Source of the DNA: an archaeon
Lineage (GTDB): Archaea > Aenigmatarchaeota > Aenigmatarchaeia > GW2011-AR5
Assembly (NCBI GenBank): GCA_016191585.1
Contig: JACPVU010000008.1
Coordinates: forward strand, 1 to 33,829
DNA: 33,829 nt
Direction of reading: 5' to 3'
The notes beneath the pieces were generated by a model, which saw nothing but the letters and a program-made list of their open reading frames with translations, ran no database searches and was not told where the DNA came from. Position 1 is the stretch's first letter; each line of letters starts with the position of its first letter. Position numbers and translations under genes: made by a program. Positions 12,145 to 30,008 of this stretch are shown in pieces.

Positions 12145-12152
12145 GTGATTTG

Positions 12153-12914
12153 ATGAAAAAAATAATGATAGCTGTTTTGATGTTTGTGCTTATGGGCACG
12201 GCTGCCTTTGCTGTCACGGTGGACAGGAGCATGCCTTCTTCTGTTGACCCTTCATCTTCATTTACAGTTTCGTTTAATATTAATCCGGAAGGCACTCTTA
12301 CAGGATTCGACCTTGCTGATTTTGTTCCAAATGGATGGAATTTGAATGACTGGTCTGTGACAGGATACTTGAAATCTGACATCACATACGACAGCCAGTC
12401 GAAAGAATATCAGGGCGCAACAAGGAACGTGCTTCACTGGAAATTCAACAAGAACATGACATCAGCAGCGACGCTGACTTATACGATGAGCGCGCCTTCA
12501 ACCACAGGGACGTATGATCTCATTGCATTATGGCTGTACCCTGGCGGATTCAACTCCAAGACTTCCAGCTTGGCTGTTGGAACACAGCAAGCGCAGCCAC
12601 AGCCTCAACCACAGCCAGAACCGCAACCGCCTGTGCAGGTAGTATGCGGCAACAACGCTGTTGAATCAGGAGAAGAATGCGACGGCACTGACCTTTCGGG
12701 ACAGACCTGCATTACAAAAGGATTCCAGGCAGGGACACTGAAATGTACGAACTGCAGGTTTGATTCCAGTGAATGCGGATCCATAGCACCTGTTCCAGGA
12801 TTTAATCTAGGTGCTGACCAGTCTATGACAGTGTACGCAATTGTCGCGATAGTGATCATAGCTGTTGCAGGCTACTGGTACTACCGCAAGCCGAAGAAAG
12901 TTGCAAATGTATAA
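12153..12914 (+). CDS. membrane-anchored Cys-rich secreted protein
   Basis: Signal peptide, PQPQPQPEPQPP linker, CGNNAVESGEECDGTDLSGQTC motif, C-terminal TM (MTVYAIVAIVIIAVAGYWYY) plus basic tail. Confidence 0.8.
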   Translation: MKKIMIAVLMFVLMGTAAFAVTVDRSMPSSVDPSSSFTVSFNINPEGTLTGFDLADFVPNGWNLNDWSVTGYLKSDITYDSQSKEYQGATRNVLHWKFNKNMTSAATLTYTMSAPSTTGTYDLIALWLYPGGFNSKTSSLAVGTQQAQPQPQPQPEPQPPVQVVCGNNAVESGEECDGTDLSGQTCITKGFQAGTLKCTNCRFDSSECGSIAPVPGFNLGADQSMTVYAIVAIVIIAVAGYWYYRKPKKVANV

Positions 12915-12992: not shown

Positions 12993-13013
12993 ATATCCAA
13001 TATTGATTATTCT

Positions 13014-13146
13014 GGCTCTGTAGAAATGCTCAAGGAAAGCATCGGTGTGAGGGGTATCGTCTATATATGATACCTCTAGTTGACATATACGTCATGTTGA
13101 CGTATATGTCTACACCGATGCTTTTTCATAGGTTTTCTACAGAGCC
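13014..13146. mobile_element. MITE-like element, 133 bp, 13-bp TIR GGCTCTGTAGAAA, flanked by 8-bp direct repeat ATTATTCT
   Basis: TIRs 13014-13026 and 13134-13146; second perfectly paired block AAAGCATCGGTGT (13036-13048/13112-13124); TSD 13006-13013 and 13147-13154. Confidence 0.85.
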
Positions 13147-13153
13147 ATTATTC

Positions 13154-13203
13154 TTTAAGACCAACGTCTTAAAAAAATACGTAAAGCTTTATTAAGACGT
13201 TAG
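13154..13203 (+). promoter_or_regulatory. palindromic operator-like site upstream of HEPN/MNT pair
   Basis: TTTAAGAC-caac-GTCTTAAA at 13154-13173 and half-site TTAAGACGTTAG at 13192-13203. Confidence 0.5.
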
Positions 13204-13217
13204 TACATATAATACGT

Positions 13218-13649
13218 ATGCAGGAACAAAAACATATTGAAGCACTGAAAGAAGTCATGGAAACACTGGAGCAAAGCCTGAAAGATTCACGCGGTCTTTG
13301 TGCATGGCAAAGAAGACTTGCTTCTATGCTGTCATTAGGATCACAACATCTTATAGAGTTTTATTTCCATAGAATGGGTGCTATGAAACCGGGGGCACAA
13401 CTAAAACACGAATGGCTTAAAATGGAAGAAAAAAACCTTAAGATCAGATTGAACGGCATAATGACAAAGTCTGCTTCAAATATCAAAGACTGGAATGAAA
13501 TATTTGCAATAGCCAAAGTAATTGAGACGGATAGAAATGATCTCGTTTATGGTTCAAACATGAAAGATGATGCAAAACTAAGGAGCAAGGTAGAGCACTT
13601 TCTTGACCTGAAAAAAATTGTGGAAAAGAACACGGGTGATATTCTATGA
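13218..13649 (+). CDS. HEPN-like (HepT-type) protein, putative toxin of a HEPN/MNT system
   Basis: All-helical 143-aa protein with ...IETDRNDLVYGS...; 4-nt overlap (ATGA) with downstream nucleotidyltransferase. Confidence 0.5.
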   Translation: MQEQKHIEALKEVMETLEQSLKDSRGLCAWQRRLASMLSLGSQHLIEFYFHRMGAMKPGAQLKHEWLKMEEKNLKIRLNGIMTKSASNIKDWNEIFAIAKVIETDRNDLVYGSNMKDDAKLRSKVEHFLDLKKIVEKNTGDIL

Positions 13650-14269
13650 CAATGCACGACGATATGCTGAGTTATGCAATAACCTCTTCTGCGTATATAA
13701 TTTCATCGATGTCATATTCCGACAGGAAAAAGATAAAAAATGTCATATTATTTGGAAGCGTTGCGCAAATGAGAACACATGAAGAATCCGACGTGGATAT
13801 ATTTTTTGATACGGACGCACCCCAAACCGTCCAGAATAGAATAAAAACCAGCATAAATAAAATGACCGGGCAGTGGAAAATGACACAGGACGCACTCAGG
13901 TTTAAAATGAAAAAGATTGACAACGATATAAATGTGACCGTTGGCAATCTTGATGAATGGGCAGACCTTCACAGAAGCATTGCGTCATCCGGTATAGTTC
14001 TTTATGGCAAATATGTTTCAAAACAGCTGTCAAAAACCATGCATATCATATTTTCCTGGGAAAATCTCGGAAAAAATAAAGGTGCCATACTAAATAAACT
14101 TTATGGATATAAATCAGGAAAAAAATATTACTCTGGATTACTGGAAAAAAATCACGGAAAAAAACTTGGCAGAGGAACAATCATGATACCTGCAGATAAA
14201 AAAGAAATTATTACGGACATGTTTGAAAAATATGGCATTGATTATTCTATGTTTGAGGTATGGGCATAA
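13646..14269 (+). CDS. MNT-type nucleotidyltransferase domain protein
   Basis: ILFGSVAQMRTHEESDVDIFFD = GSx(n)DxD Pol-beta NTase signature. Confidence 0.8.
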   Translation: MTMHDDMLSYAITSSAYIISSMSYSDRKKIKNVILFGSVAQMRTHEESDVDIFFDTDAPQTVQNRIKTSINKMTGQWKMTQDALRFKMKKIDNDINVTVGNLDEWADLHRSIASSGIVLYGKYVSKQLSKTMHIIFSWENLGKNKGAILNKLYGYKSGKKYYSGLLEKNHGKKLGRGTIMIPADKKEIITDMFEKYGIDYSMFEVWA

Positions 14270-14672: not shown

Positions 14673-14816
14673 CATAAGATTGTTGCTCATTATATTGATC
14701 AATAAATAACAATATTGCTCAATACATTAAGCAATAAGAATTCGAGTTAAGGTCAACAGAAGGAAATTTTCCGTAAATTCCCTTTTTGGGGCGCATAATC
14801 TCTCCCTTTGATAAAA

Positions 14817-14986
14817 TGCGCCCGCCGGGATTCGAACCCGGATCATCAGCCGAACTTCTTGGGAAGAAGTTCGATCAAGAACCTTCCCATAGATTTACTT
14901 CTGATACAGCCTTTATTTCTTAATCGACTTTCTTTCCTAAAGAAAGTCGTTGGAAGGCTGAGGTCCTACCATTAGACTACGAGCGC
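14817..14986 (-). tRNA. tRNA-Gly(UCC) with ~99-nt intron (approx. 14852-14950)
   Basis: Acceptor GCGCTCG/CGGGCGC+A, D-arm GTCTAATGGTAGGAC, anticodon arm TCAGC-CTTCCA...G-GCTGA, T-arm CCGGGTTCGAATCCCGG. Confidence 0.88.
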
Positions 14987-15036
14987 ATGATCATATTTGT
15001 TATAATTGTGAGTCGTGCCTTTATAAACAATATTTT

Positions 15037-29826: not shown

Positions 29827-29984
29827 GCTGGGTTGGCAGATCGGCCATGCGCCGGCCTGCAGACAAATCCCTTTTCTTGAAAGAAAAGGTCTTTGTATTC
29901 CCTAAAAGAACTCAAGGACTGTCAAGAAAGAAAGTGGATTGAAGCAGTAAGCCGGATAGGGGCGTTCAACTCGCCCACCCAGCT
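29827..29984 (+). tRNA. tRNA-Cys(GCA) with 87-nt intron (29863-29949)
   Basis: Acceptor GCTGGGT/ACCCAGC with U73; anticodon arm CCGGC-CTGCAG|intron|A-GCCGG; T-arm GGGCG-TTCAACT-CGCCC; central helix CTGC/GCAG with TAA 3' bulge consistent with a BHB splice motif. Confidence 0.9.
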
Positions 29985-30008
29985 CTGAATAAAGATAAAG
30001 GTGATTAT

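What the first reader, a model, noticed from the sequence alone, without database searches (positions are those of the whole stretch)
13006..13154. 133-bp MITE-like cruciform element with intact 8-bp target site duplication
Seen directly: terminal inverted repeats GGCTCTGTAGAAA (13 bp, perfect), a second paired block AAAGCATCGGTGT/ACACCGATGCTTT at symmetric positions separated by 9 unpaired nt on each side, then two internal hairpins (AGGGGTATC/GATACCTCT and a perfect 13-bp GACATATACGTCA-TGT-TGACGTATATGTC). The whole element folds as a branched cruciform and is flanked by exact ATTATTCT repeats. The GGnnCTGTnGnAAA-type end and 8-bp duplication resemble IS6/IS240-type insertion sequences, suggesting a non-autonomous derivative. 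There is no ORF inside. The nested palindrome architecture is unusual for a simple internally deleted IS.
Basis: partly seen in the sequence, partly recalled or inferred. Interest (0 to 1): 0.78.

Follow-up and report, generated by a model that had tools for sequence, protein, structure and literature searches.

The report
Archaeal mini-transposon with three-armed palindrome
This is a 133-base gene-less jumping element from a Candidatus Aenigmatarchaeota genome, and its three-armed palindromic middle is shared by jumping elements with two unrelated kinds of ends and seems to be kept foldable at the level of DNA rather than RNA.

Summary
It is a real mobile element: the genome and its family hold dozens of copies, at least ten with this kind of ends and a different exact 8-bp target duplication each, and relatives have matching sites without the element. 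Full-length insertion sequences with the same ends in a relative encode IS5-family transposases, and one shares 23 of 27 right-end bases with this copy (26 of 30 with another subtype). What is unusual is the inside: a three-way-junction core of about 88 bp (13-bp stem, two 12-bp arms, AGCT between them) that is also carried by a second MITE class with unrelated ends and 9-bp duplications. Those ends match an IS240/IS6-like insertion sequence. In 24 copies, 27 of 35 base pairs have double substitutions, yet G·T is as rare as A·C, unlike tRNA, so pairing is kept at DNA level. No orientation bias and no Rfam match were found. The core is confined to one archaeal family plus one truncated outlier. 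Best reading: an IS5-mobilised MITE with an exchangeable cruciform core, a new variant of a known kind.

The parts
13006..13013 (+). left copy of the 8-bp target duplication ATTATTCT
   Evidence: sequence; recovered by script with 0 mismatches
13014..13026 (+). left terminal inverted repeat GGCTCTGTAGAAA
   Evidence: identical to the left end of the IS5-family IS in G017:C8
13027..13035 (+). left unpaired spacer TGCTCAAGG (subterminal sequence repeated in other copies)
13036..13048 (+). P1 stem, 5' side (13 bp)
   Evidence: fold; pair counts
13049..13049 (+). G that faces T13111 at the junction (G-T in all 24 aligned copies as aligned)
13050..13077 (+). arm P2 (12-bp class hairpin)
13078..13081 (+). 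unpaired junction J23, AGTT here, AGCT in most copies
13082..13110 (+). arm P3, perfect 13-bp hairpin with TGT loop
13111..13111 (+). T that faces G13049
13112..13124 (+). P1 stem, 3' side
13125..13133 (+). right unpaired spacer TTCATAGGT; with the right TIR and the foot of P1 it matches the right end of the IS5-family IS in G017:C8
13134..13146 (-). right terminal inverted repeat GGCTCTGTAGAAA
13147..13154 (+). right copy of the 8-bp target duplication ATTATTCT

Best explanation
The element is a non-autonomous MITE of a Ca. Aenigmatarchaeota genome. Inferred from the ends: an IS5-family transposase acting in trans binds GGCTCTGTAGAAA, cuts the target with an 8-nt stagger and leaves 8-bp duplications. 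Shown: the element is repeated, with other 8-bp duplications, in this genome and in others of the family, and insertion sequences with the same ends and an IS5-type transposase exist in a relative. Its interior is not a coding remnant of an IS but a foldback core: a 13-bp stem closed by G-T, two 12-bp hairpin arms and AGCT between them. The same core, with the outer half of P1 replaced, sits in a second MITE class with GATTG...CAATC ends and 9-bp duplications that match a different, IS240/IS6-like, IS. So the core behaves as an exchangeable module. Most likely step, inferred: recombination or template switching within the inverted-repeat stem swaps and flips the core between ends. The arms are kept almost perfectly Watson-Crick by a DNA-level process, either hairpin-templated correction or selection for an extruded cruciform. 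An extruded core could help a 130-bp element, shorter than the bending length of duplex DNA, to bring its two ends together for the transposase.
For: Copies: C51 76%, C74 and core-only copies; core model hits about 13 places in this genome and 8 others of its family at E < 1e-3. Duplications: 10 exact, different 8-bp ones at type A ends and 6 exact 9-bp ones at type B ends. Sites without the element: two in G014 against G018 and the G006 orthologue of the downstream gene pair, where homology starts at 13155, just after the duplication. IS5 partners: G017:C8 (GGCTCTGTAGAAATCC, 8-bp duplication GTGAATTA, NF033579 E 1.4e-27 and 3.9e-22) and G017:C50 (perfect ends GGCTTTGTAGAAA, open frame of 286 aa, 148 bits, over the IS5 cut-off). 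The right end matches the IS5 right end at 23/27, and at 26/30 in a sister subtype. Covariation: 27 of 35 pairs with changes on both sides, 95.8% paired against 75.5% in shuffles. Strand symmetry: G-T 12, A-C 14 in the element; 22 and 2 in phage T5 tRNA stems, Fisher p = 0.0007. Arms of 12 bp in nearly all copies, also where J23 is AGTAACTA.
Against: No IS5 transposase at E 0.001 or better was found in this genome, which is only 69% complete. The G017:C8 transposase frame is broken at an assembly gap, and G017:C50 lacks a clean duplication. Type A and B ends share no obvious sequence, so the transfer route of the core is inferred. Hairpin-templated correction alone could explain the covariation without any function of the core, although it does not obviously explain the fixed 12-bp arms and AGCT. 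No experiment shows extrusion.
Confidence: 0.82

Rival explanations
1. The core is a structured RNA (a regulatory RNA or ribozyme) that hitchhikes in MITEs; base pairs are kept because the transcript must fold.
For: Strong covariation and fixed arm lengths; near-invariant GTGAG/CTAGCTG/CTAC around the junction.
Against: G-T is no commoner than A-C, unlike a tRNA control. Among tandem genes the core points with transcription about as often as against it (my count of about 10 to 9), and many copies lie between divergent genes. No Rfam match.
Confidence: 0.12
2. A MITE of the IS6/IS240 family.
For: GG...CTGT.GAAA ends and 8-bp duplications are also typical of IS6 elements (PMC7986276); an IS240-like gene exists in this genome.
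Against: That IS240-like IS has GATAGAATTCC... ends which match the other MITE class; both ISs found with the type A ends carry IS5-type transposases.
Confidence: 0.05
3. An ordinary MITE with no role for the core: both end classes carry the core by descent and chance recombination, and the arms stay perfect only because hairpin-templated replication slips correct one arm from the other.
For: Strand-symmetric pairing; core flips relative to the ends; nested extra hairpins in some copies (G000:C3, G015:C27, G014) show that hairpin-generating events occur.
Against: Arm length of 12 bp, AGCT and overall length of 130-134 bp hold across unrelated ends and strongly diverged arm sequences.
Confidence: 0.4

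Closest known systems
MITEs derived from IS5-family insertion sequences (ISH1/IS903-like ends; the subgroup is recalled, not tested)
   Same: Short, non-coding, terminal inverted repeats shared with an IS5-family IS, duplications of 8 bp, intergenic, multicopy.
   Different: The interior is a conserved branched core not seen in the IS and shared with MITEs of another transposase family.
Archaeal IS6-family MITEs (such as MITEHarch3, PMC6807381; PMC7986276)
   Same: GG-ended repeats and 8-bp duplications.
   Different: The ISs found with these ends are IS5 family; the two IS6 MITEs cited in PMC7986276 are 227 and 336 bp.
Double-hairpin elements and other palindromic repeats of mitochondrial genomes (e.g. 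PMC7218506, PMC2800124)
   Same: Compact palindromic units with adjacent hairpins, found repeatedly.
   Different: Here the hairpin pair sits in a stem inside transposon ends and has target duplications. Resemblance only; no sequence comparison was made.
REP palindromes (GTAG-tagged, PMC3733652)
   Same: Small intergenic palindromes; the reverse strand of most copies reads GTAG at the foot of P3.
   Different: TIRs with duplications and DDE-type partners; the AGTAACTA subtype has no GTAG at that place. No REP-associated tyrosine transposase was looked for.

Membership tests
MITE | short, no ORF, terminal inverted repeats | tested here: met
   133 bp, 13-bp perfect ends, no ORF listed
MITE | target duplications that differ between copies | tested here: met
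   10 exact 8-bp duplications at type A ends
MITE | sites without the element in relatives | tested here: met
   two orthologous spacers of G014; G006 orthologue of the downstream gene lacks it
IS5-family MITE | an IS of the family with the same ends | tested here: met
   G017:C8 and G017:C50
IS5-family MITE | mobilisation in trans by that transposase | not testable with these tools
   needs a transposition assay
IS6/IS240-family MITE | 8-bp duplication and GG-ended repeats | tested here: met
   shared with IS5 subgroups, so not decisive
IS6/IS240-family MITE | an IS6-type IS with the same ends | tested here: not met
   the two PF13610 genes of this genome have no such pair of ends (scan) and those of relatives showed none on inspection; the ISs with these ends are IS5
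structured RNA family | match to a described family | tested here: not met
   none at gathering score for 9 loci; none relevant at E up to 1 for the window stretch
structured RNA family | excess of G-U over A-C among non-Watson-Crick pairs | tested here: not met
   12 against 14; tRNA control 22 against 2

The most novel reading that the evidence does not exclude
The three-way-junction core is a selfish DNA-structure module in its own right. It is swapped between MITEs of two transposase families because its extruded, fixed-geometry cruciform (two 12-bp arms) actively helps very short elements to pair their ends or recruits a host DNA-junction protein.
Probability: 0.25. Interest if true: 0.7.

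Novelty: new variant of a known kind. Interest (0 to 1): 0.45.

Why it matters
MITEs are usually thought of as leftovers of one IS. Here one folded core travels in the ends of two unrelated transposases with a nearly constant total length, which suggests that what lies between the ends may matter for the mobility of very short elements. It also gives a clear case where covariation, normally taken as evidence of RNA structure, more likely reflects DNA-level upkeep; counting G-T against A-C is a simple way to tell the two apart.

Tried and rejected
RNA-family match: Rfam gave nothing relevant. IS6 parentage: rejected by the ends of the IS240-like genes. Independent mobility of the extra double hairpin nested in C3b/C21b: no copies outside these two elements. 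Hairpin excess in the window as a whole: 14 perfect short hairpins against 2-8 in shuffles, but two lie in a tRNA intron and few are related to the element. Virus source: the core pattern is absent from IMG/VR. Distribution outside the family: 160 genomes of the class hold no match at E 0.001 beyond the family, apart from a truncated but convincing copy in JACQOB010000171 = G143 of another family. A tRNA control from fetched loci was too small and was replaced by phage T5 tRNAs. No paper on transposons of Aenigmatarchaeota that describes such elements was found.

Full report
Observation. The element is as described: window 13014-13146, 133 bp, perfect 13-bp ends GGCTCTGTAGAAA, exact flanking ATTATTCT, perfect 13-bp inner stem and two inner hairpins. 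Its fold energy lies 12.6 standard deviations below dinucleotide shuffles, and no listed ORF overlaps it. It lies between ORF 12150-12914 and a gene pair 13218-13649 / 13646-14269 whose second member is a nucleotidyltransferase.

It is repeated and mobile. A DNA search of the own genome (756 kb, 105 contigs, 69% complete) found two further full copies, C51 (76% identity, duplication AGGTAAAT) and C74, and several places that match only the middle. A covariance model of the middle found about 13 places in this genome and copies in 8 other genomes of its family at E < 1e-3. An exact-pattern scan of 85,462 GTDB species gave 18 stretches, all Candidatus Aenigmatarchaeota, and none in IMG/VR. A script that looked for end repeats and adjacent direct repeats recovered ten exact and mutually different 8-bp duplications at this kind of end. 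The C74 duplication overlaps the element end and is imperfect.

Sites without the element. In G018:C44 two elements 2 kb apart, one of each end class, are both absent from the orthologous spacers of G014; the genomes differ by about 25%, so the sites are matched by flanking genes and not base for base. For the window copy, the downstream gene pair has an orthologue in G006 whose promoter region is homologous from 13155 on, the base right after the duplication, with no element upstream. The G006 contig ends before the upstream gene could be compared.

The parent is most likely an IS5-family element. In G017:C8 an insertion sequence begins GGCTCTGTAGAAATCC, ends TTTCTACGAAGCT and is flanked by GTGAATTA on both sides. 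Its frame, broken by an assembly gap, matches NCBIfam IS5 family NF033579 in both halves (E 1.4e-27, 3.9e-22). In G017:C50 perfect ends GGCTTTGTAGAAA, 909 bp apart, enclose an IS5 frame of 286 aa above the family cut-off. The right end of the window element matches the right end of the G017:C8 IS at 23 of 27 positions, and a sister subtype matches at 26 of 30. The IS240/IS6-like gene of this genome at C3:33500 is bounded by GATAGAATTCCATTAACGTATGAT-type ends and is not the parent. IS6 and some IS5 groups both give duplications of 8-9 bp (PMC7986276, PMC3281130), so duplication length alone could not decide.

The core is shared by two MITE classes. Many copies have quite different ends, GATTG(A/T)ATYCCA...GTATGAT / ATCATAC...CAATC, with 9-bp duplications (six exact). 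Those ends match the C3 IS240-like IS. Yet the inner part of P1, both arms and AGCT are the same module. The core stands in either orientation relative to the type A ends (G015:C40 against G015:C58). Total length of copies without inserts is 130-134 bp in both classes.

Anatomy and upkeep of the core. P2 and P3 are 12 bp in nearly all copies, also in a subtype whose junction reads AGTAACTA instead of AGCT. In 24 aligned copies 95.8% of cells pair (shuffled 75.5%), 27 of 35 pairs have changes on both sides, and sliding the partner by one column destroys this. Relatedness inflates the shuffle control, but not the slide control. Apart from the constant G-T pair at the junction there are 12 G-T and 14 A-C cells among 815. 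The same count on 24 phage T5 tRNAs gives 22 G-U and 2 A-C (Fisher p = 0.0007); cells of related copies are not independent, so the p-value is indicative. The tRNA frame was chosen by pairing, which favours G-U a little. In tandem gene pairs the core points with or against transcription about equally often (my count of about 10 and 9, crude ORF calls), and many copies lie between divergent genes. These facts speak for DNA-level upkeep of the palindrome and against a strand-specific RNA.

How it works. Shown: repeated, inserted with duplications, absent from relatives' sites, ends shared with IS5 elements, core shared across end classes, pairing kept symmetrically on both strands. Inferred: trans-mobilisation by an IS5 transposase; exchange of cores through recombination or template switching in the P1 stem; correction of one arm from the other, or selection for an extruded junction. 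The idea that the folded core helps a 130-bp element to bring its ends together is a proposal that the fixed lengths suggest but do not prove.

Place among known things. It is a MITE by every feature tested and belongs with the IS5 family by its ends. The branched core that crosses transposase families is the new part. I found no description of it in the papers searched, though that library lacks many journals and ISfinder could not be searched.

Noticed in passing
window 14816-14987, minus strand: tRNA gene with a 97-nt intron in the anticodon loop, missed by the default ARAGORN run and found when introns were allowed (named Trp(cca) there, identity uncertain); the intron holds two hairpins of its own.
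   Followed up: partly
window 29827-29985, plus strand: Second candidate tRNA with an 87-nt intron (ARAGORN: Ser(gct)).
   Followed up: no
window 13155-13217: Inverted repeats TTTAAGAC..GTCTTAAA and AAGCTTTATTAAGACGTTAGTAC before the gene pair 13218-13649 / 13646-14269 (second gene a nucleotidyltransferase, first weakly HEPN-like), conserved in G006: probable operator/promoter of a HEPN/MNT-type pair.
   Followed up: partly
G000:C2:1019, C8:874, C12:1523 (L012, L011, L010): A second repeated element with two hairpins (CCCACACCT..AGGTGTGGG and CACACGAC..GTCGTGTG), resembling the ends of IS200/IS605-type elements.
   Followed up: no
L087 (G000:C3:27694-27835), L184 (G015:C27), L173 (G014:C2, near 250.7 kb): Copies in which pairs of short hairpins, mostly with 3-nt loops, are nested inside arm P2 or P3, making tree-like palindromes.
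   Followed up: partly
L088 (G000:C72:2205-2293): A three-armed palindrome of the same geometry (11- and 12-bp arms, AGAA junction) with other ends (GATCGATATTTG).
   Followed up: no
L173 5838 (G014:C2:255138): A lone type A left end directly abutting the 3' end of a tRNA-like sequence.
   Followed up: no
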